22,363 nucleotides of DNA from a virus. The notes under the pieces are model-generated. The model was given only the letters and a program-made list of their open reading frames with translations, searched no databases and had not been told where the DNA came from. How positions within the stretch are numbered: the stretch's first letter is position 1; the number at the start of each line of letters is the position of its first letter. The stretch covers positions 1 to 22,363 of IMG/VR virus record IMGVR_UViG_3300013126_000271, one strand, 5' to 3'. Shown piece after piece: positions 1 through 20,789 of this stretch. The position numbers were made by a program, and so were the translations under genes.

Positions 1-549
1 AATATGATATAAACGTTCATTAAACTTTACTTTTTGGTCTAGATAATTAGTCCTTTTTAGGACTTGGTTAATTATTACCGAATCTGTCGACCGTAAAGAT
101 TGAAAATAAGATTTAGGGTGTAGTAATTTAATTTTTTGAATAATAGTAGATTTTAATTCTTCCGTATTATAATCTTCTTCATGTATATTACTATTTCTAA
201 TTTTAATATTAATAGATCTATTGCAAACACTACATTTATCAAAGTACCCATCTTTAGCTTGAAACCAAACTTTTCTACCACAGATAGAACAAACAGGTTC
301 TTCTATTACTTTTAGTTTACATAGATGATATATTTTACTATTGGAAAGAATGTGTTCATATGTTCTAAAAATTGTTTTATATAGCTCTGGATTACTATTA
401 ATCATTATTCTTTTAATATTAGCAACATCATGAGTTTCAAAAAAGTTAATAAATTGTTCCTGAGCAATATTTAATTCAAATTCTTTTATACTAGAATTGT
501 TAAAAAGTTCTATTTCCCGTTGTTTACTTTTTTCACTTGAAAAATTCAT
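1..549 (-). CDS. Partial gene, zinc-ribbon protein, probable free-standing homing endonuclease (N-terminal part)
   Basis: An open frame of 183 codons starts at 549 and runs off the left edge without a stop. Around residues 83-104 it has a CxxC...CxxC zinc ribbon (CSIC, then CSVC about 15 residues later). The N-terminal part is charged and helical. The end of the visible part (FNERLYHI) resembles the linker before the second zinc motif of Vsr-like (EDxHD) phage homing endonucleases. The catalytic domain would lie outside the window, so this assignment is inferred from layout and zinc motifs. It stands alone downstream of the sheath gene, with its own TATAAATA promoter and a terminator separating it from the sheath. 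Composition is very AT-rich, like the endonuclease gene inside the terminase locus. It could instead be another zinc-binding phage protein. Confidence 0.5.
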   Translation of the reverse strand, partial: MNFSSEKSKQREIELFNNSSIKEFELNIAQEQFINFFETHDVANIKRIMINSNPELYKTIFRTYEHILSNSKIYHLCKLKVIEEPVCSICGRKVWFQAKDGYFDKCSVCNRSINIKIRNSNIHEEDYNTEELKSTIIQKIKLLHPKSYFQSLRSTDSVIINQVLKRTNYLDQKVKFNERLYHI

Positions 550-3325: not shown

Positions 3326-5026
3326 TTACCAAGTAAATCCATCAGCATCTGTTTTGATTTCATTATCAAACTCATCGTCTGGGAGATAACCAAATGCAGG
3401 AGTTTCTTCCATTTCCTGATCTTTTTCAGCCTTTATAACACTAATCAATTTTTGTGGATCGGCAATTTCTGAAATGTCTAATGTTTTTGACATAAGAAAA
3501 AACAATGCAGAAATCAAAGCCATAACTAGATCATCTTGGTAACCAGATTCTGCTTTATAACTATCCTTAACTTTTATAAAGGTTGAAAGTTGTGAAATTG
3601 TATCAAAGTCATTCAATACAAGTTGATTCTTTTCAAGTAACATTTTTAGATTAGTACAACCCATTCTTTTTGTTTTCTTGGTTGTGCGGTAACCAGGAAG
3701 ATTACCTTTCTCAAAGTAAATGTTTTCATACTCATAGTCGAAGTGAATCATGTTTGCAACTTCTTGGCCTATTTCGTTGTTCTCCACGAACATATAAGCT
3801 TCGTTATAGTACATTCCAAGTTTAAAAGCCATCTCTGGAGAGAACAAATAGTTGAAACCTTCTTTAGCGAAGAACGTAGCAACTTGTTTGAACGGGTAAG
3901 CGGTAATATCAAGAACCTGCATACCTAGAGCGTCACCAGAGTTTTCTTCAGTCATTTTACAAGAGTCAACTCCAATAGTATAAGTATGACCTTTCTTTGG
4001 TTCCTCATATATCTTTAAGAACTTATAATACTCTTCTGGAATGTTACTGAATATTCTTGGATGTTCTATCTCCTGTTTGTGTTTTAGTTCTCTAACTATT
4101 TCTGGTTCAATTAGTGTTGCAATACTACCAAGAAAAGAATTTTGATATTCTTGAAGAAATCTTTGCATGCCGATGTTGGCAATAGTTTCTTCTTTCCATT
4201 TTTCGTCCCTACCAGGAACCTGCCACCAGTCAACTTTAATAGGGTGAAATTTATTTCTGCCTTCTATAGCATCTGTCCAATCCTTATAAAAGTGATTCAT
4301 ACCATTAGGAGTAGAAACATAAATTACTTTAGAATCTTTACCTGAAGAAATTGTTGGATAGACTGATGAAATGAAGCCCGACCATACGCTGTTTTCGACG
4401 AATGACCGCTCATCGCATATTGCACACCAAATGGATCTACCACGTATCGCAGTTGAAGATGTTGCACTAGCAATAACCATATTACCATTTTCTAATTTTA
4501 TTGACCCAGAGTTCCAAACATAAACACCTTGTTGTAACCATTTTGGAAGAAGTTCATATGCTAATTTTACTTTTCTTAAAAGGTCTCTAGCTTGTTCAGC
4601 TTTATTAGCCAATAAAGCTATAGTTTTATCTTTATTAAAAAGTAAATTCCAACAAACAAAAATTTCAAATGAAGTTGATTTTCCACAATTATGTGATAAA
4701 ATATCATTTGTATAATACCTAGAATTTGAAACATCTAAAATATCATACATTATTTCTTTTTTGTTTAGAATAGTTTTTTTTATAACACTTTCGGGACCGT
4801 TTTTAGTGAAAATAATATCATTAATTTCTATATTCAATAAATCCACTTCTGAAAGATCGGATTTAAAAATAGAATGATTAGGAGCTCCTTTTAATATTAA
4901 ACCGTTACTTGTTTCTATTTCTATAATATCTAACGGTGGAGTAATTCCCAAACCAGAAAAATCTTTCCAACCTTCATCTGTTAAAATTTCAAAATCTTCT
5001 ATATTAATAATTTTTTGAAATTTCAT
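3326..5026 (-). CDS. 17: Terminase large subunit, C-terminal part with fused C-intein (split terL, gp17-like)
   Basis: This 566-aa ORF encodes the C-intein (residues 1-113) fused to most of the packaging motor ATPase/nuclease. The extein starts at Cys114 with CGKST, the second half of the Walker A loop. Walker B is at about 203-206 (hydrophobic run ending CDE). The RNase H-like nuclease domain shows D354 (IGVDS), E415 (FVENNE) and D498/D499 (YQDDLVMAL), matching the three acidic residues of T4 gp17 nuclease. Joined to the 92-residue N-extein encoded upstream it would give about 545 residues, against 610 in T4. The start at 5026 has an AAGGA site about 9 nt upstream and overlaps the endonuclease gene by 23 nt. 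Without trans-splicing this polypeptide has no adenine-binding segment and only half a P-loop, so it should be an inactive ATPase. Confidence 0.93.
   Translation of the reverse strand: MKFQKIINIEDFEILTDEGWKDFSGLGITPPLDIIEIETSNGLILKGAPNHSIFKSDLSEVDLLNIEINDIIFTKNGPESVIKKTILNKKEIMYDILDVSNSRYYTNDILSHNCGKSTSFEIFVCWNLLFNKDKTIALLANKAEQARDLLRKVKLAYELLPKWLQQGVYVWNSGSIKLENGNMVIASATSSTAIRGRSIWCAICDERSFVENSVWSGFISSVYPTISSGKDSKVIYVSTPNGMNHFYKDWTDAIEGRNKFHPIKVDWWQVPGRDEKWKEETIANIGMQRFLQEYQNSFLGSIATLIEPEIVRELKHKQEIEHPRIFSNIPEEYYKFLKIYEEPKKGHTYTIGVDSCKMTEENSGDALGMQVLDITAYPFKQVATFFAKEGFNYLFSPEMAFKLGMYYNEAYMFVENNEIGQEVANMIHFDYEYENIYFEKGNLPGYRTTKKTKRMGCTNLKMLLEKNQLVLNDFDTISQLSTFIKVKDSYKAESGYQDDLVMALISALFFLMSKTLDISEIADPQKLISVIKAEKDQEMEETPAFGYLPDDEFDNEIKTDADGFTW
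4688..5026 (-). other. C-terminal half of split intein (IntC) in TerL
   Basis: Residues 1-113 of the C-terminal TerL ORF have no terminase similarity but carry intein landmarks. A block-B-like stretch LKGAPNHSIF (residues 45-54) has the conserved His51. The C-terminal block MYDILDV then YYTNDILSHN ends with His112-Asn113, and Cys114 is the +1 nucleophile. Boundary codons check out: Asn AAT at 4688-4690 and Cys TGT at 4685-4687. The usual block-B Thr (TxxH) is Ala48. With the N-part the full intein is about 144 residues, the size of a mini-intein without an embedded endonuclease. Confidence 0.9.
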
Positions 5027-6167
5027 TTAAAAATTCCTTACATTTATTCAATTCTCTTTCCTTGTTATTCTTATAGTCTCGTTCCCAGATAATTAAAATT
5101 TGGTACCCATTATCCAAGGCAACTTGGTGTTTGATTCTATCTAATTCCCATATTTCTAAAGCTGTTTTTTTAATTTTTTTATTAAAAAAATCTTTTTGGT
5201 AAACATCTGGGTTAGCATGCCAATAATCACCATTGTATTCTATAATTTTCTTTTGTGAAGGATCAGCAATGTCAAACAAAAAACATCTTCGATCAAATAA
5301 TGCTAATTGTTGTTCTAATTGAAATTCTTTAGACAAAATATTAAATAATTCTTTTTCTTTTTTTGAAATAGAATATCCTTTAGTAATTTTCTTTCGATTT
5401 ATTTCTGACCGTTCTTCTTCAGATTTTGAGTTTAAAGTTTCTTGCCAACGATCTTGTCTATCTTGCCATATCTTCAACCCTTCTTCTTCCCCATACCGTA
5501 AAATACACTTTTCTTTTGAAAATGTTGCTTGTCTGTCACTTAAAAGTAATTTAGCTTCTTCTAACTCATACCCCAACTTAAGCCAATGTTCAATATGGTT
5601 AGTTTGATTTTGTGGATTATCTTTTTTAGTTTGTTTAACTTTTGATATAACATTTTCGATTGCTATTTCTTTATTATCTAAATCTTGATATTTAACAAAC
5701 TTTTTAGAAAAAGGAGAAAATTTACCACCGTGTTTATAACCAGGATTAGTTTCACCTTTTATTTTTTCGGAGCAATAATTTATATATTCTTTACAAAAAC
5801 AATCTTCTGTCGATAAATTATATTTTTTCTTATATTCACTAAAAGGTATTTTATGATGATCTCTTACATGAGCTAAAACAGATCGACACATAAATCCACA
5901 TATTTTACATTCGACTTTATTACTTGGATCTTTTCTGGAATTTTCTATATGAATTATATTGTAATATTCCTTTCTGCATTTAACCGAACAAAATTTAGCT
6001 GATGACTTTTTATCTGTTATTACAGAATTACAATAGTCACAAAATCTTTTAGGAATGTATAATTCTCTATATTCTTCCGATGTTATGTTATGTACACTTT
6101 TTAAATGATGATAAAAACTTTTAACTTTCTTTTTACAAATTTCACAATACATTAAATTATTAGCCAT
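5004..6167 (-). CDS. Free-standing EDxHD (Vsr-like) homing endonuclease between the terL halves
   Basis: This 387-aa protein probably cuts intein-free terL alleles and drives spread of the split-intein locus. The N-terminal part has three zinc-finger-like motifs: C8/C11/H21/H26, C43/C46/C60/C64 and C87/C90/H100/H105. A basic GETNPGYKHGG-type linker (about 138-148) follows, a motif seen in phage homing endonucleases. The C-terminal ~115 residues have a Vsr-like fold signature: E273 (KELFNIL), D299 (FLFDIAD), H317 (YNGDYWH), D343 (WELDRIKH), then GYQILIIWERDY. This fits the EDxHD catalytic pattern described for I-Bth0305I and for endonucleases between split inteins. A late promoter and AAAAAAGG site precede the ATG at 6167. 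The 3' end overlaps the IntC ORF. It is very AT-rich compared with the terminase body. Confidence 0.88.
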   Translation of the reverse strand: MANNLMYCEICKKKVKSFYHHLKSVHNITSEEYRELYIPKRFCDYCNSVITDKKSSAKFCSVKCRKEYYNIIHIENSRKDPSNKVECKICGFMCRSVLAHVRDHHKIPFSEYKKKYNLSTEDCFCKEYINYCSEKIKGETNPGYKHGGKFSPFSKKFVKYQDLDNKEIAIENVISKVKQTKKDNPQNQTNHIEHWLKLGYELEEAKLLLSDRQATFSKEKCILRYGEEEGLKIWQDRQDRWQETLNSKSEEERSEINRKKITKGYSISKKEKELFNILSKEFQLEQQLALFDRRCFLFDIADPSQKKIIEYNGDYWHANPDVYQKDFFNKKIKKTALEIWELDRIKHQVALDNGYQILIIWERDYKNNKERELNKCKEFLNEISKNY

Positions 6168-6185
6168 ATGAACCTTTTTTACTAT

Positions 6186-6193
6186 TATTTATA
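6186..6193 (-). promoter_or_regulatory. T4-type late promoter of the terL-locus endonuclease
   Basis: An exact TATAAATA octamer on the minus strand in the 40-bp gap between the N-intein stop and the endonuclease ATG. The predicted start near 6180 leaves a 13-nt leader that still contains the ribosome site. It would also drive the downstream IntC-TerL ORF. Confidence 0.75.
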
Positions 6194-6207
6194 CATCTAG
6201 ACAAGTA

Positions 6208-6579
6208 TTAAGAAATTATATTTTCTAATTCTTTTAATGTTAATTCTTGAATTTCACCGGTTTTTTTATTTCTTATTTTAATTTTAGAATCACCCACAAC
6301 ACATTGTCTACTCGCCAGAGTTATGCTAAACCTTCTTTTAATAAATGATTCAACCATATCTATTTGATAATCTCTTAATTTTGGATGTACCATTCCTTTA
6401 TCTATATCTAATATAAAATAATAGTTTTCGGCAAAATACTTCCAATCATTAGCACATTTAAGATACTCCTCTATATGTTCTTTTGTATATGCTAGTTTTG
6501 TATTCGGTTTTTTAAGATTTGGATTTCCATCAAAAGCTATTTCATTTCCAAAAATATCTTCCTTTATATCTTCTACCAT
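6208..6579 (-). CDS. 17: Terminase large subunit, N-terminal part with fused N-intein (split terL)
   Basis: This 123-aa ORF encodes the first 92 residues of TerL followed by about 31 residues of N-intein. The extein carries the segment before the P-loop (KLRDYQIDMVESF, about 67-79, then RRFSITLASRQ), matching T4 gp17 where SRQ is followed by LGKTT. The frame then enters intein sequence at Cys93 (CVVGDSKIKI) and stops at 6208. It cannot act alone as an ATPase. It must associate with the C-terminal ORF encoded about 1.2 kb downstream and trans-splice. The ATG at 6579 has an AAAGGAAAC site upstream; an out-of-frame ATG at 6583 is not used. It is separated from the fibre gene by a terminator, so it needs its own promoter, which I cannot identify. 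It is AT-rich (12 of 60 G/C at 6361-6420). Confidence 0.92.
   Translation of the reverse strand: MVEDIKEDIFGNEIAFDGNPNLKKPNTKLAYTKEHIEEYLKCANDWKYFAENYYFILDIDKGMVHPKLRDYQIDMVESFIKRRFSITLASRQCVVGDSKIKIRNKKTGEIQELTLKELENIIS
6211..6303 (-). other. N-terminal half of split intein (IntN) in TerL
   Basis: Residues 93-123 of the N-terminal TerL ORF form a block-A-like start (CVVGDSKI), a charged turn (RNKKTGE) and a short helix before the stop. Cys93 is TGT at 6301-6303, immediately after the SRQ of the P-loop. At about 31 residues this half is much shorter than the usual ~90-110 residue N-inteins, so the break lies between blocks A and B. Confidence 0.88.
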
Positions 6580-6665: not shown

Positions 6666-7736
6666 TTATAGTTCGGCGTCGGCAGCAAATGTAAAGCGGA
6701 GTCCGTAAATTGAACTGCCGCCTGCATATACTATATGCAGTATATTTGTAGTGTCTAATCCTGTAGACGCATATGAATACGCATTAGCTACTTGCCCCCC
6801 GGGTCCGGTGATTGCAGTCACCTTGCCAGAGGTAGAGACGTCATCAAACACAGTAACTGTAGGTGCTGCCCTTTTTGTAACTTTGTAATTTACCGCTACA
6901 CCAGAGTATGCAGTTCCAGCGCTCGGAAAATAGCTGACTCCCGATCCTACTTCGTAGTACCGCTGGCATAGGGCAAGCTCGGTTGCTGGATGTCTAACTT
7001 CAAAGTTAGTTGCTACTGAACCTTCTTCAAGCTGGACTTGGGCGATGTCGAATGTACCTGATTGCTGACCGAGGGAGTTAGCACGGGAATTATAATCAGA
7101 GCCAGCATCAAACCAAAAAAGTACATTAAGCCTGTCATCACCACTAGTACCAAGAGTCTTGCCATTGATGCTTGGGATGTTTACTGTCACGGTGAATTTC
7201 TGCCAAGAAGTAGTGAGAGCGCAAGTGGTTACTCCTATCCCTGTGATAGCTGCAGATGGAGAGCCGCCTGTACCGAAATCTTGTAAAAATTCAACGGCTA
7301 TATTTTTAGCTGCATCAGCTTTTGCATAGAAAGAGAGTGTTGCGGTTTTGCCTGCAAGCGTACGGACAGATTCAATGCCCTGGTATTTACTACATTGATT
7401 TCCCGCCCCCGCAACAGAAGTTACAACAGTTCTGGAGAAGTATTTTGGTTCATTAGGCACATCAGTTTGCCCGAGAGTAAATGCTTGTTGCGAATGAGTC
7501 TTTGTTGAACCACCGCTACTATTTAACCACCTGTCATCGCTACCGTAACTAGAAGAAGTCTGACTTGTTCCACGCTGCCAGATGTCAAAGTTGCCGTTGA
7601 TGATGTAGTTCTTTCGACCCTTCAACATCTCATTTACATAATGAGTTGATGCTATGTTTGTTGAGTTGTCAGTTAACGCTGGATTACTAGCAATCGCTGT
7701 AATAGGACCAACAACTATTTTATCTCCAATAGCCAT
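6666..7736 (-). CDS. Fibre or decoration protein with carbohydrate-binding-like jelly roll
   Basis: A 356-aa structural-type protein, probably surface exposed. Residues about 12-38 (a DNSTNIAST...YVN stretch) resemble the repeats at the base of tail fibres. Residues 41-70 (RKNYIINGNFDIWQRG, then DDRW) start a beta-sandwich found in fibre and CBM-like phage proteins. QVQLEEGSVATNFE (about 233-246), followed by ATELALCQRYYE, is the hallmark end of that domain. No catalytic motif is visible. It sits between the capsid gene and terL, so it may be a head fibre rather than a tail fibre. The gene is much richer in GC than its neighbours (36 of 60 at 6781-6840; 20 of 60 in the capsid gene at 8161-8220), which suggests recent acquisition. 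A strong AAGGAG site precedes the ATG. Confidence 0.7.
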   Translation of the reverse strand: MAIGDKIVVGPITAIASNPALTDNSTNIASTHYVNEMLKGRKNYIINGNFDIWQRGTSQTSSSYGSDDRWLNSSGGSTKTHSQQAFTLGQTDVPNEPKYFSRTVVTSVAGAGNQCSKYQGIESVRTLAGKTATLSFYAKADAAKNIAVEFLQDFGTGGSPSAAITGIGVTTCALTTSWQKFTVTVNIPSINGKTLGTSGDDRLNVLFWFDAGSDYNSRANSLGQQSGTFDIAQVQLEEGSVATNFEVRHPATELALCQRYYEVGSGVSYFPSAGTAYSGVAVNYKVTKRAAPTVTVFDDVSTSGKVTAITGPGGQVANAYSYASTGLDTTNILHIVYAGGSSIYGLRFTFAADAEL

Positions 7737-7746
7737 TTATATCTCC

Positions 7747-9117
7747 TTAATAAGTTTTTCTAACTTGACTAACTAAATTTGCACCTTGGTTGGCTATAGA
7801 GCTAACATCTCCAAAGTTTACAGAAACATATCTAAAGAAGTCTGAATCGCCAATTCCGTTTCCAGAATCTTGTGGGTGACGTATATAACCATAACGATTC
7901 ATTGTCATATACACTTGACCGAAAGTAGCTGGGTCAGTAGCTTCAACTAAAGTAGAAACATAAGGAGTAAAAATCAATCCAGCATCATCTTTAGCATCTG
8001 ACTCATAACGGTAACCAATGATCATATAATGTTCTGTTGAAAATGGGTCGCAATACAATGGATATGCACCAATAGAACCAACACGGTAAGGGTTTGATTC
8101 TTCAGGAGTTGAATCCGAATGTAGAGCGTTGGTTGTCAACAATGCGACTGTTGCAGAGTCAGCTAGAATAAACATTGTACGATTACGCTTTGTTGCTTTA
8201 ACAATTTCTTCTATTGCAGCAAAAATAGTAAAGTAAAGATCATAAGTTAAGTCACCAATTGAACCAGATGATGCATTTGCAAATGATTTTGAGAGGTCAA
8301 TATCAACAGGCATTGGAGTTGCGATATCTTTTAAGTATTCAACAATTTCACGGTCAATCTCTTGTTGAATTTCATTTGCAATATATCTACCTACAATATT
8401 GTTTGTTTCTTCACCGTAGAGTTTTTGAACATCCTGAACCTTCTCACGAGTAAACGCTGATTTAATCTTTTTAGTTTTACAAGTTAAGGTAGCAGTTCTA
8501 ATTTCAAAGTTGACTTGATTTACAGCTGAATCAATCTCTTGAATTCCAGCGTAGTTAGAAAAAATGCGTTTTACAATGTTACGGTTAGCAGAAGCGTATA
8601 ACACCTTAATTGGAGTTGCTCCAAAAGTAAATGTATCGTTAGTAACAATATTACCGGAATCAACTCTAACCAGTACATGAGTGTAATATGGATTTGCTGA
8701 ACTTTCTGGTGTATAAATTGGACCACCTGAAACAGTTTCTTTATAGAAAACAGTTATAACATTTGACCCAGAACTAGCACTAGATCCAACAGTTATTAAA
8801 GAAGCAGCGGAAGCAGCAACAGTAATAATCTTTGAGTTCGACCAAGTCATACCTGGAACAATACTTCCATCCACGTGAAGGTTGTTGTCGTTGTTAGAAG
8901 CGTTTCCTGAATACATAGAATACAAAGCGGAGACTCTAGCAACAGGGGAAGTTGTTGGTTGAATAGAAGCAATTTGTGCAACCAATGATTCTGGATAAAT
9001 TTTCTGAACCAATGGAAGAATAATTGGTGCGAACTGTCCAACATCACTAGACACGTTTGTTTCTGTCAACACGTTCTTTTGAAGACACTCGTTAATCAAT
9101 TCAAATTTTTGTTTCAT
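7747..9117 (-). CDS. 23: Major capsid protein, gp23-like
   Basis: This 456-aa protein forms the head shell. The HK97-like order of T4 gp23 is visible: ILPLVQKIYPESLVAQIASIQPTTSP (residues about 33-58, quoted in part), a variable loop at about 95-160, then FEIRTATLTCKTKKIKSAFT, VQDVQKLYGEE, and YIANEIQQEIDREIV in the spine region. Later come FILADSATVALL, the YPLYCDPFS strand, IIGYR and DAGLIFTPYVSTL. LTE at residues 17-19, followed by Thr, matches the T4 prohead-protease site in gp23 (LTE then Ala) but much nearer the start, implying a very short propeptide. T4 gp23 has 521 residues. It lies between terS and terL rather than after genes 20-22. It overlaps the upstream Cys-rich gene by 17 nt. 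Confidence 0.9.
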   Translation of the reverse strand: MKQKFELINECLQKNVLTETNVSSDVGQFAPIILPLVQKIYPESLVAQIASIQPTTSPVARVSALYSMYSGNASNNDNNLHVDGSIVPGMTWSNSKIITVAASAASLITVGSSASSGSNVITVFYKETVSGGPIYTPESSANPYYTHVLVRVDSGNIVTNDTFTFGATPIKVLYASANRNIVKRIFSNYAGIQEIDSAVNQVNFEIRTATLTCKTKKIKSAFTREKVQDVQKLYGEETNNIVGRYIANEIQQEIDREIVEYLKDIATPMPVDIDLSKSFANASSGSIGDLTYDLYFTIFAAIEEIVKATKRNRTMFILADSATVALLTTNALHSDSTPEESNPYRVGSIGAYPLYCDPFSTEHYMIIGYRYESDAKDDAGLIFTPYVSTLVEATDPATFGQVYMTMNRYGYIRHPQDSGNGIGDSDFFRYVSVNFGDVSSIANQGANLVSQVRKTY

Positions 9118-9301
9118 ATATTTCCTCTTCTTCTACTAGAAGTTTTATTGTATTATCCTTAATTCCATCAAAGCAGAATGTAGTTCCTTTTGAAATTGGA
9201 AATGAATCCATTTTAGTTACTGGAAGTCTATGACAGGTTCCGTTTAATGAATTTCCAATGCGATTCCAACATAAACAATCTTTACAATATACTTTTTCCA
9301 T
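9101..9301 (-). CDS. Small cysteine-rich protein, probably zinc-binding
   Basis: A 66-aa protein with Cys6, Cys9, Cys11, Cys23 and Cys43, in a CxxCxCW...GTCHRLPV...FCFDG layout. Similar small phage proteins of unknown function have a CxxC, GxCxRxP and C pattern that probably binds one zinc ion. It lies between terS and the capsid gene and overlaps the capsid start. The start at 9301 has only a weak AGGT site and follows the terS stop by 4 nt, which suggests translational coupling. I do not recognise a specific function. Confidence 0.7.
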   Translation of the reverse strand: MEKVYCKDCLCWNRIGNSLNGTCHRLPVTKMDSFPISKGTTFCFDGIKDNTIKLLVEEEEIYETKI

Positions 9302-9305
9302 ATAC

Positions 9306-9791
9306 CTATTTATTGTCCTTAATTAGTTGTAACAAATCAGTTGTACTTCCAGAGTAGACAATATTATTGTTTACTACTGTTCCCATATTTACATTCGCTT
9401 GAGTTTGTTGTTTTGCTGCTTCTTTGATTCTCAATTTTTCTATTTCAGCGATATCTTTATAAATGGAAATAAGCAACTTCAAATTATTACCAATAGTCGA
9501 TTGCATTTCAGACAACGCCTGTAACTGACTCGCTTTCATATCAGTAACATCTAAAACTGATGCAGTATCTAAAACACGTTGACCTGTAGAAACCAGTTTC
9601 AAGATATTATTTCTTATCAACATAAAATCAGTTTTCAAAAGATCTAATGTGAAAACTGTTTCCTGAATTTCCGCTGGAACATCTGAAGATATCGTAAGTT
9701 CTGGTAGATCTTCAACTTCTTCAGTCAACTCTGAAACCAATGATGTTGCTATGTTTAGTTTCTTTTCTAAATTCTCAAATTTTTTGTTCAT
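9306..9791 (-). CDS. 16: Terminase small subunit, gp16-like
   Basis: This 161-aa protein is close in length to T4 gp16 (164). It is mostly helical with a central coiled-coil region (about residues 50-125), consistent with the ring-forming core of TerS that recognises DNA and stimulates the TerL ATPase. The end (NMGTVVNNNIVYSGSTTDLL, about 135-154) resembles the T4 gp16 segment [20 protein letters not shown]. Position supports it: it follows gp15 as in T4. TerL, its partner, is about 2.7 kb downstream instead of adjacent, with the capsid and fibre genes in between. Confidence 0.85.
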   Translation of the reverse strand: MNKKFENLEKKLNIATSLVSELTEEVEDLPELTISSDVPAEIQETVFTLDLLKTDFMLIRNNILKLVSTGQRVLDTASVLDVTDMKASQLQALSEMQSTIGNNLKLLISIYKDIAEIEKLRIKEAAKQQTQANVNMGTVVNNNIVYSGSTTDLLQLIKDNK

Positions 9792-9804
9792 TAGTTACCT
9801 TAAT

Positions 9805-9963
9805 TTATTTCATTACAACAGGAATAAAGTTGAGAATACTTCCAACAACTTCTTTTATGTATACTCTAGAGTCAGGAACAAATACTCCAATCAAAGAAAC
9901 AATTAGAATAAAAGCAACTAAAATAATCATTACGATTTTTTTTGTATTTTCTGAAAGTTCCAT
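9805..9963 (-). CDS. Small single-pass membrane protein (52 aa)
   Basis: A short frame between gp15 and terS, with a GGAG site and an ATG at 9963, one base after the gp15 stop. Residues 1-9 are hydrophilic with a KK pair, residues about 10-29 form one hydrophobic helix (IVMIILVAFILIVSLIGVFV), and a mixed C-terminal tail ends PVVMK. It is preserved in a dense operon, which supports it being real. Size and topology would suit a small holin-like or accessory membrane protein, but nothing in the sequence proves a lysis role. Confidence 0.7.
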   Translation of the reverse strand: MELSENTKKIVMIILVAFILIVSLIGVFVPDSRVYIKEVVGSILNFIPVVMK

Positions 9964-9964
9964 A

Positions 9965-11191
9965 TTACGCTCCAAAGAAAGGATTTGGTGTTGTCGATGT
10001 ATCTACAAAGTAATTAAACTTCTCTTCAATCTTCTGAAGATGTGCAATCCATTGTTGATCTACTTGAATATATTCTGATCCAGAAGCATACATATTAGTT
10101 TTCACATCTAAAATAATTGGATTGATGCCAAAATGTAAAGTAACATTTGAAATATTTATCATTATATTATTAGAAAGTTTTATTGTACCATCAGGTAAAA
10201 TTTCAACAATATATGTGTTATCAGGAATACCTTCACCCCAGACTAACATACCAACTTTCAAATTATTTTGTGCAGGTGGTATAACTTTAATATAATCTGC
10301 ACCACTTGCAGCTGAACATCCTGTGGTTTCAAGTGAATAAAGAATATCTTTACCTGAAAAAACAATATCAGAATTAAAGTCTGCAGTTACACCATTAGAA
10401 AGAATAACAGTACTAGGTGGTATTAAACCTACAATGTAAGCCCCATTTGGTATTCCTGGGCCTGAAACTAAAGTACCTGGTGTTAGTTTATTGAATTCAA
10501 CTTCAGAACCTATTTCAATTTGATTTGAACCTGATACACCAATAGCAAAATAAGTTTTACGGTTGACATATCTTTTCTTCGGATAGAAGTTTGACTTAAC
10601 AGTAAAGTTATAAGAGAAGTTAATTAACCGTTCTTCATCTTCATTAAAGTCTACTGGAATATCAGTTGTTACACCATTAAACACAATAGGGACTGAATCA
10701 GGATCTAATCCAGGTTGTAGTTTAACGGACAAAGATAACTCAGGAGCAAAGTAAGGTAAAATTTGTTCCATTATTTGAAGATTATCATCTAGAGTTTTAC
10801 TTACAACATAAACTTCCAAATCAAAGTTATACGGAGCCGGAACATATTGAGCTTCATTCCCTATCCTTTGAGTTTTAGTTAATTTACGAGTTGCATCATA
10901 GTTAATACCATTCATGAAAACCGAGATACGAGGAAGAACCCATTGCATCTCTACGGGGTTCTTTTCTCTAATTGCTGGGTCCATTACTTTTCTAGCAGTA
11001 GATGAATTATAAATAGCTGACCATTTCTCCCTAGAAGCCCACTGAATAGGAACTGGAACATTTTTTCTTTGAATAAAAACAGAACTTAAACTTGGAGTTA
11101 TAGCTTCCCCGTAACGGTTTACAGTAATACGACTAAACCAATCCATAAAAGTTGTTATGATTATCTTTGTTGTATAATTGTCAACACTCAT
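9965..11191 (-). CDS. 15: Tail completion and sheath stabiliser protein, gp15-like, with C-terminal beta repeats
   Basis: This 408-aa protein is the tail terminator that caps the tail tube and sheath and joins them to the neck. The first ~205 residues follow T4 gp15 (272 aa): FMDWFSRITVNR near the start, VPVPIQWASREKW (45-57), VLPRISVFMNGINYD (85-99), PYNFDLEVYVVSKTLDDN (120-137) and IMEQILPYFAPEL (140-152). The extra C-terminal part holds two tandem beta modules of about 65 residues (219-280 and 290-355), each with a VSG/VWG-GPGIP-like turn, a YIV strand and ILSN/KLSN. These resemble Ig-like decoration modules of phage structural proteins. The ATG overlaps the gp14 stop (ATGA). Confidence 0.88.
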   Translation of the reverse strand: MSVDNYTTKIIITTFMDWFSRITVNRYGEAITPSLSSVFIQRKNVPVPIQWASREKWSAIYNSSTARKVMDPAIREKNPVEMQWVLPRISVFMNGINYDATRKLTKTQRIGNEAQYVPAPYNFDLEVYVVSKTLDDNLQIMEQILPYFAPELSLSVKLQPGLDPDSVPIVFNGVTTDIPVDFNEDEERLINFSYNFTVKSNFYPKKRYVNRKTYFAIGVSGSNQIEIGSEVEFNKLTPGTLVSGPGIPNGAYIVGLIPPSTVILSNGVTADFNSDIVFSGKDILYSLETTGCSAASGADYIKVIPPAQNNLKVGMLVWGEGIPDNTYIVEILPDGTIKLSNNIMINISNVTLHFGINPIILDVKTNMYASGSEYIQVDQQWIAHLQKIEEKFNYFVDTSTTPNPFFGA

Positions 11192-19285: not shown

Positions 19286-19954
19286 ATGTTAATCTACAAA
19301 GCAACTAATTCCATCAACGGTAAATCCTACATTGGTCAAACAGCTAAACCTTCTATTGAACCTAGAAAAAATAAACATTTTAAAAATGCCTTTAAAGATT
19401 TAACACAAACCCATTTTTATAGAGCATTACGCAAATACGGTAAAGATAACTTTACATGGGAAATATTGTGTTATTGTAACACAAAGGAAGAGTTAAACCA
19501 AAAAGAAATATACTATATAGAATATTTTCAATCCATGTCTTTTCAAAATGGTTATAACATGACAAAAGGCGGTACAGGAGGTGATACTTGGACCTACAAC
19601 TTCCGTCTTCCAGAACTTAAAAAGTTAAAAAGTTTACAAACCTCTGGTAAAAATAATCCAATGTATGGAAGAGATAGAAAACAAAATTATCTTTTGGTTT
19701 CCCCTGAAGGAATACAGTTTTCTTGTAATGGAATATTGAATATAAAGTTAGTAACAAATAAAATATTAAGTAAACAAATAATTGCCAATTTAGTTTCTAA
19801 AAAATGGGATCATTATAGAGGTTGGCAAGTGTTTAATTACAATTCTACTATTGATATTAAACATTTTAATGAATTATCAGAAGAACATTTTATTCGAAAA
19901 CCAAATGGTAAAGGTCAGGGTATAGTTACTATAGCTTGGTTTCTTCATAAGTAA
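19286..19954 (+). CDS. Free-standing GIY-YIG homing endonuclease
   Basis: A 222-aa protein with an N-terminal GIY-YIG domain: IYKATN (3-8), GKSYIGQT (12-19), R27 and H31 in the next helix, and metal-binding E74 (ELNQKEIYYIEYF). GKNNPMYGR (121-129) is a NUMOD3-like DNA-binding motif, and the C-terminal part is a helical and basic recognition region. It resembles seg-type or intron-type endonucleases of T4-like phages. It lies in the gap between gp45 and gp44 but on the opposite strand, so it is not an intron ORF of those genes. GAGGTGA 4 nt before the ATG is a strong ribosome site. A late promoter and structured leader precede it. Confidence 0.92.
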   Translation: MLIYKATNSINGKSYIGQTAKPSIEPRKNKHFKNAFKDLTQTHFYRALRKYGKDNFTWEILCYCNTKEELNQKEIYYIEYFQSMSFQNGYNMTKGGTGGDTWTYNFRLPELKKLKSLQTSGKNNPMYGRDRKQNYLLVSPEGIQFSCNGILNIKLVTNKILSKQIIANLVSKKWDHYRGWQVFNYNSTIDIKHFNELSEEHFIRKPNGKGQGIVTIAWFLHK

Positions 19955-20096: not shown

Positions 20097-20789
20097 CTAG
20101 CTAGCTACTCCAATAAAGTAATCAATACCATTAGTATTAGACCACTTTGAGATCTTCGTGGACAGCTTAACTGTATATGCACCAGGCATAATCTTAAAGT
20201 CAGCCAATACCACTTTAACGGGAGCAGTTAACGAGTTGGACTTAATCCCTTCCTCAATAGTTACTTCATAGTTATTAGAACTGGAGTTAAGTTCATCACC
20301 AGCAGTTAGACGAATCTTCTTTTTATCACTCTCAAAGAAAATATACTTGGACTTCAAAATAGTAGCCATCTTCAAAAGGAACGCAAGTTTATCAGCTGTA
20401 ATAGTAAATTCGAGTTCACATTCTAGAGCATCAAACTTTTTGCCTACATCTGGAACAGTTGGAAGAAGATCTTTCGCAGTTGTAAAATACTTTAGTGAAG
20501 CGTCACCATCTACAATGTTAAGATACTTTGCATTTACTTCTACTTGTGGTTTGTCCATAGCTCCAAGAGCAGTAAGGAATTCCGATGTTTCATAGATACC
20601 AAATGGTTCGTATTCGTACGGAGTTTCAAATTTACAAAATCCTATAACAGATTTCGAGTTATTGATAACCTTAAAACCATCTGGCTCAAGAATCATCGAG
20701 GTATTGATCGTACTAAAGTTTTTTAAGCAATTAATTTCACTTTCAGTATACATGAAAGGTGTTACATTTACAGTTTCTTTTTTTGCCAC
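20097..20789 (-). CDS. 45: DNA polymerase sliding clamp, gp45-like
   Basis: A 230-aa protein (T4 gp45 has 228) that forms the trimeric ring around DNA. It tethers the polymerase and, in T4, activates late promoters with gp33 and gp55. Landmarks include the N-terminal LKNFSTINTSMIL (22-34), FGIYETSEFLTAL (62-74), and the C-terminal end NGIDYFIGVAS, typical of T4-type clamps. Its presence with TATAAATA promoters suggests the T4-style coupling of replication to late transcription. A hairpin follows the gene, so downstream gp44 may be partly uncoupled. Confidence 0.93.
   Translation of the reverse strand: MAKKETVNVTPFMYTESEINCLKNFSTINTSMILEPDGFKVINNSKSVIGFCKFETPYEYEPFGIYETSEFLTALGAMDKPQVEVNAKYLNIVDGDASLKYFTTAKDLLPTVPDVGKKFDALECELEFTITADKLAFLLKMATILKSKYIFFESDKKKIRLTAGDELNSSSNNYEVTIEEGIKSNSLTAPVKVVLADFKIMPGAYTVKLSTKISKWSNTNGIDYFIGVAS

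What the first reader, a model, noticed from the sequence alone, without database searches (positions are those of the whole stretch)
4685..6579. Terminase large subunit split in its Walker A loop by a split intein
The N-terminal ORF ends its extein at SRQ and continues CVVGDSKI. The C-terminal ORF has a DILSHN end followed by CGKST. Joined, they read SRQCGKST, the P-loop of TerL (T4 SRQLGKTT). Cys1, penultimate His, terminal Asn and Cys+1 are all present, so trans-splicing is plausible. DNA packaging would depend on a protein ligation step between two separately translated ORFs about 1.2 kb apart. From memory this matches the atypically split TerL inteins known from metagenomes (AceL-TerL type), but with the full phage context.
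Basis: partly seen in the sequence, partly recalled or inferred. Interest (0 to 1): 0.85.

Follow-up and report, generated by a model that had tools for sequence, protein, structure and literature searches.

The report
Phage packaging motor in spliced halves
In this virus the gene for the motor that packs DNA into the virus shell is cut in two through the middle of its ATP-binding loop; each half carries part of a self-splicing protein that should join them, a DNA-cutting gene that probably spreads the arrangement sits in the gap, and some relatives hide that cutting gene inside an unbroken splicing gene by reading the same DNA in a second frame.

Summary
The window (a whole 22,363-bp T4-like virus record) carries a fractured terL: N half (6208-6579, minus) ends SRQ plus a 31-aa IntN; C half (3326-5026, minus) starts with a 113-aa IntC ending SHN, then CGKST. 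The predicted spliced 545-aa TerL aligns without a gap across the junction to an intact relative with TRQCGKST.

It is an S2-type (atypical, short-IntN) split intein like AceL/GOS-TerL, but at a different TerL site; AceL-like inteins sit at EF(E)|CEFLG. Of 90 distinct junction pairs compared, 81 lie at P-loop GK|[ST]; the window alone lies at RQ|CGKST.

Unexpected, in relatives: in about ten (two tree lineages) the intein is one continuous ORF with the endonuclease nested inside it in another frame. The intein frame has 0 stops where 14-22 are expected; split relatives show about the expected number. The endonuclease's ribosome-binding site and start codon are dual-coded in the IntN motif TIGEFYE, at the atypical split point: a testable origin for such split inteins. 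Splicing and homing were not tested.

The parts
6304..6579 (-). TerL N-extein (92 aa, ends SRQ of the Walker A loop)
   Evidence: PHROG 5989 terminase 5.2e-29; gap-free alignment across the junction to intact TerL of L082
6211..6303 (-). IntN, 31 aa, CVVGDSKIKIRNKKTGEIQELTLKELENIIS; stop codon 6208-6210. Covers block A and the first helix (S2 split)
   Evidence: tblastn matches to the IntN of 14 related loci beside the window's own; junction survey
5004..6167 (-). Homing-endonuclease-like ORF, 387 aa, between the intein halves
   Evidence: Vsr fold: VIA Z 12.2 to Vsr 1cw0, 11.6 to I-Bth0305I 3r3p; Ros/MucR zinc finger Pfam 1.7e-7; family sits between intein halves in relatives
5013..5372 (-). 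Vsr/EDxHD-like nuclease domain (residues 266-385); invariant D299, E310, W316, H317, D343
6057..6155 (-). First Ros/MucR-type zinc finger (residues 5-37)
5760..5927 (-). Second Ros-like zinc finger region (residues 81-136)
   Evidence: VIA Z 4.5 to Ros 2jsp; Ros 2jsp also the best PDB sequence match, E 0.15 for the window protein and 0.0044 for the family profile
6173..6177 (-). Putative Shine-Dalgarno (AAAGG) of the endonuclease
   Evidence: sequence
5035..5039 (-). Putative Shine-Dalgarno (AAGGA) of the C-half ORF, inside endonuclease codons
   Evidence: duplex energy -6.1 kcal/mol
5004..5026 (-). 23-nt overlap of the endonuclease 3' end with the IntC start, in different frames
4688..5026 (-). 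IntC, 113 aa, starts MKFQK, ends DILSHN; block-B His51, His112, Asn113
   Evidence: alignment A1; solved inteins
3329..4687 (-). TerL C-extein, 453 aa, Cys+1 GKST, Walker B ICDE, nuclease domain; stop 3326-3328
   Evidence: Pfam Terminase_6N 6.2e-17, Terminase_6C 5.6e-5; gp17 3.1e-67

Best explanation
The terL gene is broken inside its P-loop by a class-1 split intein of the atypical S2 kind (IntN 31 aa, IntC 113 aa), and an EDxHD/Vsr-type homing endonuclease gene occupies the split point. Most likely mechanism: three proteins are translated from one transcript; IntN threads into IntC to complete the HINT fold; Cys1 makes the N-S shift, Cys+1 takes the N-extein, Asn113 cyclises, and a seamless 545-aa TerL with P-loop SRQCGKST results. 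Neither half alone has a Walker A motif, so packaging ATPase activity should need the ligation. The endonuclease would cut intein-free terL near the P-loop codons and copy the whole IntN-endonuclease-IntC cassette into it. Shown here: ORFs, splice residues, relatives, an intein-free allele that fits the junction exactly, folds. Inferred: splicing, cleavage, homing, co-transcription.
For: All class-1 residues and block-B His present and conserved in relatives. Solved split/atypical inteins are the best matches. Gap-free junction and pre-existing Cys in the intein-free relative L082. The same IntN/HEG/IntC order is repeated in dozens of viral loci: 73 of 90 distinct junction pairs have the HEG between the halves, in TerL and other P-loop genes. 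The endonuclease model has the Vsr/I-Bth0305I fold. No Rfam intron or other RNA family in the window. No second terL in the record.
Against: No splicing, cleavage or homing was measured. The C-half ORF could in principle act as a separate subunit. The genome is incomplete, so an intact terL elsewhere is possible. The record is metagenomic, and a frameshift or assembly error cannot be fully excluded, although all three ORFs are intact.
Confidence: 0.9

Rival explanations
1. The interruption is a self-splicing intron with an intron-encoded endonuclease, inserted within an ordinary contiguous intein; RNA splicing would rejoin the intein frame.
For: EDxHD endonucleases are known from introns (I-Bth0305I, listed as a mobile intron protein).
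Against: No group I/II intron or any Rfam family in the window. IntC has its own ATG with a good Shine-Dalgarno. Relatives show the endonuclease start codon and ribosome site inside IntN codons and IntC starts inside the endonuclease, leaving little room for intron ends.
Confidence: 0.04
2. A dying element: the gene is broken, the halves no longer splice, and this genome is defective or has another terL.
For: The genome is incomplete; one relative (L021) shows a decayed endonuclease and frame-broken halves.
Against: All three window ORFs are intact and the catalytic and splice residues conserved. TerL is essential, and both exteins keep full-length similarity to intact TerL.
Confidence: 0.04
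3. The halves work as a two-subunit TerL without splicing, as reported (background knowledge) for an NrdA split by a homing endonuclease gene in phage Aeh1.
For: Such split proteins without splicing exist.
Against: The break is inside the P-loop, and both ends carry exactly an intein half with every splice residue.
Confidence: 0.02

Closest known systems
AceL-TerL / GOS-TerL and their consensus CatC (atypical S2-split TerL inteins)
   Same: S2 split after the first helix (as placed by PMC13014065), short IntN (25/37 aa against 31 here), Cys+1, TerL host gene; IntC profile matches CatC at 6e-9
   Different: Different insertion site: the CatC-like intein (88.7% identical, L276/277) lies at TerL EFE|CEFLGS and has a GIY-YIG endonuclease in its gap; the window lies in Walker A with an EDxHD endonuclease
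Fractured genes with split inteins and Vsr-like homing endonucleases (Dassa et al. 2009, NAR; known from citation and background, paper not held)
   Same: Split intein halves in separate ORFs with a Vsr-like endonuclease gene in the gap
   Different: According to the literature read here, canonical split points coincide with the usual endonuclease insertion site (about 100/35 aa) (PMC13014065, PMC12707363); here the endonuclease sits at the early S2 point
Contiguous TerL mini-inteins of Ackermannviridae (Salmonella phage Maynard, Vibrio phages VAP7, Kuja)
   Same: Related IntC (about 39-44% to L002 IntC) at the Walker A GK|T site
   Different: Single ORF, no endonuclease, GK|T rather than RQ|C
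[quoted passage not shown] PMC11855218)
   Same: A homing endonuclease hidden in a second reading frame of an insertion that stays open in the host frame, like the open relatives found here
   Different: The authors found no intein or intron in it; here the open frame is flanked by real IntN and IntC. The window itself is not of this open type

Membership tests
Class-1 intein | Cys/Ser1, block-B His, penultimate His, terminal Asn, Cys/Ser/Thr+1 | tested here: met
   C1, H51, H112, N113, C+1
Class-1 intein | HINT fold | tested here: met
   By sequence to solved inteins for the window family; by model for relative L213: IntN+IntC form a HINT fold, VIA Z 13.7 to 5o9j. The window's own pair was not modelled
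Split intein | IntN and IntC on separate ORFs | tested here: met
   Three different frames; 23 stops in the IntC frame through the endonuclease
Split intein | Trans-splicing activity | not testable with these tools
   Needs co-expression
AceL/GOS-type atypical (S2) split | Short IntN ending after the first helix | tested here: met
   31-aa IntN, 113-aa IntC; definition from PMC13014065
AceL/GOS-TerL allele | Insertion at TerL ...EF(E)|CEFLG | tested here: not met
   Window at SRQ|CGKST; CatC-like L276/277 at EFE|CEFLG
Fractured gene with Vsr/EDxHD endonuclease | EDxHD-fold endonuclease gene between intein halves | tested here: met
   Position; fold Z 12.2 Vsr, 11.6 I-Bth0305I; sequence profile to 3r3p only E 0.08
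Fractured gene with Vsr/EDxHD endonuclease | Cleavage of the intein-free allele | not testable with these tools
   Needs a biochemical digest
T4 gp17-type TerL | Walker A/B ATPase plus RNaseH-like nuclease domain in the spliced protein | tested here: met
Group I/II intron | Rfam-detectable intron core around the interruption | tested here: not met
   No family at gathering threshold
Open (contiguous) intein with out-of-frame nested endonuclease, as in L007/L213/L246 | No stop in the intein frame through the endonuclease | tested here: not met
   Window has 23 stops in that frame, 21.4 expected

The most novel reading that the evidence does not exclude
The window's split intein descends from a contiguous intein in which the endonuclease was dual-coded: its ribosome-binding site and start codon lay inside the IntN helix codons (TIGEFYE) and its ORF ran in another frame through an open intein frame. 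Such open forms survive in about ten relatives. Once stop codons appeared and IntC gained its own start, the gene became split exactly at the endonuclease start, which explains the atypical S2 split point. That open, dual-coded inteins exist is strongly supported (about 0.9); that the window and S2 inteins in general derive from them is much less certain.
Probability: 0.4. Interest if true: 0.82.

Novelty: new variant of a known kind. Interest (0 to 1): 0.62.

Why it matters
Split inteins with short N pieces are prized for joining synthetic peptides to proteins, and only a few natural ones have been characterised; this adds one at a new site plus dozens of relatives as raw material. It shows that an endonuclease gene lies at the atypical split point too, so the same explanation can serve canonical and atypical splits. 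The relatives with an endonuclease hidden in a second frame of an unbroken intein show an alternative way for one element to carry both activities, and make the question of how split inteins arise testable. It also means that packaging in such phages should depend on protein ligation in the ATP-binding loop.

Tried and rejected
Window IntC as a single-sequence query found no relatives in viral contigs; the endonuclease and then the IntC alignment did. Rfam search found nothing. Idea that L007's continuous ORF was chance: rejected by synonymous-codon permutation, the third-frame control and further loci. Idea that the shadow-frame protein is itself functional: not supported, since it is no more conserved than the unused third frame and is predicted disordered (pLDDT about 25). 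Idea that open loci lack a ribosome-binding site for IntC while split ones have it: no difference (p 0.97), although some starts chosen there are probably spurious. Direction of change: the tree gives two changes with split as the commoner state, but clearing 15-60 stops step by step seems unlikely; left open. Dassa 2009, GOS-TerL 2015 and the Gosselin 2025 intein preprint could not be read, so prior description of hidden endonucleases in inteins cannot be excluded. The S2 structures of AceL and the window were not compared directly; the AceL site was inferred from an 88.7%-identical relative of CatC.
Full report
OBSERVATION. The window is the whole of a 22,363-bp virus record with T4-like genes on the minus strand: sheath, gp23-like capsid, sheath stabiliser and clamp loader. 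terL is in two ORFs. The N ORF (6208-6579) ends its extein at SRQ and continues with a 31-aa IntN; the C ORF (3326-5026) starts with a 113-aa IntC ending DILSHN and continues CGKSTSFE.

IT IS TerL AND THE JUNCTION IS EXACT. The N extein matches terminase PHROG 5989 (5.2e-29), the C half Pfam Terminase_6N/6C and T4 gp17 (3.1e-67). Joined exteins align to the intact TerL of L082 over 542 columns with 55% identity and no gap at the junction: ASRQCGKSTSFE against ATRQCGKSTSFE. So the +1 cysteine is already present in an intein-free relative, as a class-1 intein needs. In about 80 TerL loci sampled the residue at that place is usually S, V or T, and C in two.

IT IS AN INTEIN. In 16 aligned IntC sequences the block-B His (H51 in the window) and terminal Asn are invariant and the penultimate His nearly so. 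The profile hits VidaL (1.1e-10), gp41-1 (2.9e-10), CatC (6.2e-9) and NrdJ-1 in the PDB. The IntN covers block A and the first helix, which is the S2 split position named for AceL-TerL and GOS-TerL in PMC13014065.

A 387-aa ORF (5004-6167) fills the gap and overlaps the C ORF by 23 nt. It has Ros/MucR-type zinc fingers. Its model (pLDDT 85) has a C-terminal Vsr-like nuclease: VIA Z 12.2 (115 residues, 2.8 A) to Vsr 1cw0 and 11.6 (96 residues, 3.6 A) to the homing endonuclease I-Bth0305I. By sequence alone the link to I-Bth0305I is weak (E 0.08). The conserved residues D299, E310, W316, H317 and D343 fit an EDxHD-type site (inference). No Rfam intron is present.

THE FAMILY. Scans of viral contigs with the endonuclease, the IntC alignment and a second endonuclease alignment gave over 200 loci. 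Among 90 distinct junction pairs, 73 have an endonuclease of this family between the halves and 81 lie at P-loop GK|[ST]; the window is the only one at RQ|CGKST. Host genes include TerL, gp46-type exonuclease, helicase, clamp loader, polymerase and AAA+ proteins (names by motif and analogy, not each tested). The sample was drawn by similarity to the window and is not unbiased. Some TerLs are in three pieces with two split inteins (L004, L006, L018, L277). In L277 the second intein is 88.7% identical to CatC, lies at EFE|CEFLGS, is also S2-split, and has a GIY-YIG-like endonuclease in its gap (the endonuclease type is read from its N-terminal motif, not scanned). Thus AceL-type inteins use another TerL site, and an endonuclease sits at the S2 point there too. 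The papers read here link endonuclease insertion only to the canonical split point (PMC13014065, PMC12707363).

THE UNEXPECTED PART. In L007, L213 (=L212, L243), L216 (=L218, L255), L246, L247, L248, L249, L254, L262 and, in part, L184, the ORF is open from N-extein through IntN, across the whole endonuclease gene in another frame, through IntC into the C-extein. Permuting synonymous codons of each endonuclease predicts 14-22 stops in that frame for the full-length genes; each has 0. The remaining frame of the same genes has about the expected number (for example 29 against 27), and the split relatives, the window among them (23 against 21.4), have about the expected number in the intein frame. 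The endonuclease protein is conserved between these loci (mostly 40-60%), while the shadow-frame protein is no more alike than the third frame. So openness, not a shadow sequence, is what has been kept. The model of L213's continuous intein puts IntN and IntC together in a HINT fold (VIA Z 13.7 to 5o9j over model residues 59-478) with TerL flanks matching gp17, and the shadow-coded linker disordered (pLDDT about 25). The overall model confidence is low (mean pLDDT 46).

DUAL-CODED START. In about 33 loci, open and split alike, the endonuclease starts 79 nt after the Cys1 codon begins, usually with a strong Shine-Dalgarno, for example ACTATAGGAGAATTTTATG, which is at the same time the IntN codons TIGEFY(E). 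In the window this arrangement is gone: IntN ends at its own stop, and the endonuclease has its own spacer and AAAGG site, starting 43 nt beyond the IntN stop position. The IntC start carries AAGGA inside endonuclease codons.

EVOLUTION. A tree of 85 endonuclease+IntC pairs places the open forms in one supported clade of seven (SH-aLRT 96) and L007 separately, inside a supported 19-member group that holds the window; starred branches force at least two changes. Parsimony favours split as ancestral. Against this, a frame with 15-60 stops cannot easily be cleared stepwise, whereas an open frame is split by one stop plus one start, and N and C halves share a frame in 16 of 20 loci of the main overlap type where both were read. 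I leave the direction open.

MECHANISM AND LIMITS. Most likely the three ORFs are co-translated, the halves splice in trans, and the endonuclease mobilises the cassette. Steps shown: sequence, residues, homology, folds, intein-free allele. Steps inferred: splicing, cleavage, homing. The genome is incomplete and metagenomic.

NOVELTY. The window is an atypically split, endonuclease-bearing TerL intein at a new site, hence a new variant of a known kind. Hidden out-of-frame endonucleases are known from the ShiLan insertion, for which the authors found no intein (PMC11855218); that paper cites a preprint on non-canonical actinobacteriophage inteins that I could not read. I found no held paper describing one within a functional-looking intein.

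Noticed in passing
L007:4470-7457, L213:3783-6629, L246:4643-7444, L247, L248, L249, L254, L216, L262: Continuous inteins with an out-of-frame nested EDxHD endonuclease; intein frame free of stops against 14-22 expected
   Followed up: yes
L277:985-5070 (also L004, L006, L018): TerL encoded in three ORFs with two split inteins and two different endonucleases (EDxHD then GIY-YIG-like in L277; HNH-like by eye in L004)
   Followed up: partly
L162 (Caulobacter phage Cr30, KF301602) 8007-10725: Free-standing endonuclease of the same family directly upstream of an intact terL (P-loop SRQSAKST), a possible intein-less or collaborative homing state in a cultured phage
   Followed up: partly
L324 Maynard, L323 VAP7, L325 VPALA, L327 Kuja: Ackermannviridae and related Vibrio phages carry contiguous TerL mini-inteins of this family at Walker A, mostly unannotated
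   Followed up: partly
L326 (Vibrio phage vB_VmeM-32) 1102-3216: Annotated TerL starts directly with an IntC, so this cultured phage probably has a split TerL; the N half was not found in the stretch read upstream
   Followed up: no
L196, L225: TerL genes with three IntC domains each
   Followed up: no
window 19286-19954 (+): GIY-YIG endonuclease antisense between the clamp-loader gene and the next minus-strand gene (20097-20789, clamp-like by position)
   Followed up: no
window 6666-9117 (-): gp23-like capsid gene and a tail-fibre gene lie just upstream of terL, unlike the T4 order
   Followed up: no
window 1-549 (-): ORF running off the contig end with a zinc-ribbon-like CxxC pair, no confident family
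   Followed up: no
L021:5600-8750: Decaying version: endonuclease and TerL halves broken by stops or frameshifts
   Followed up: no
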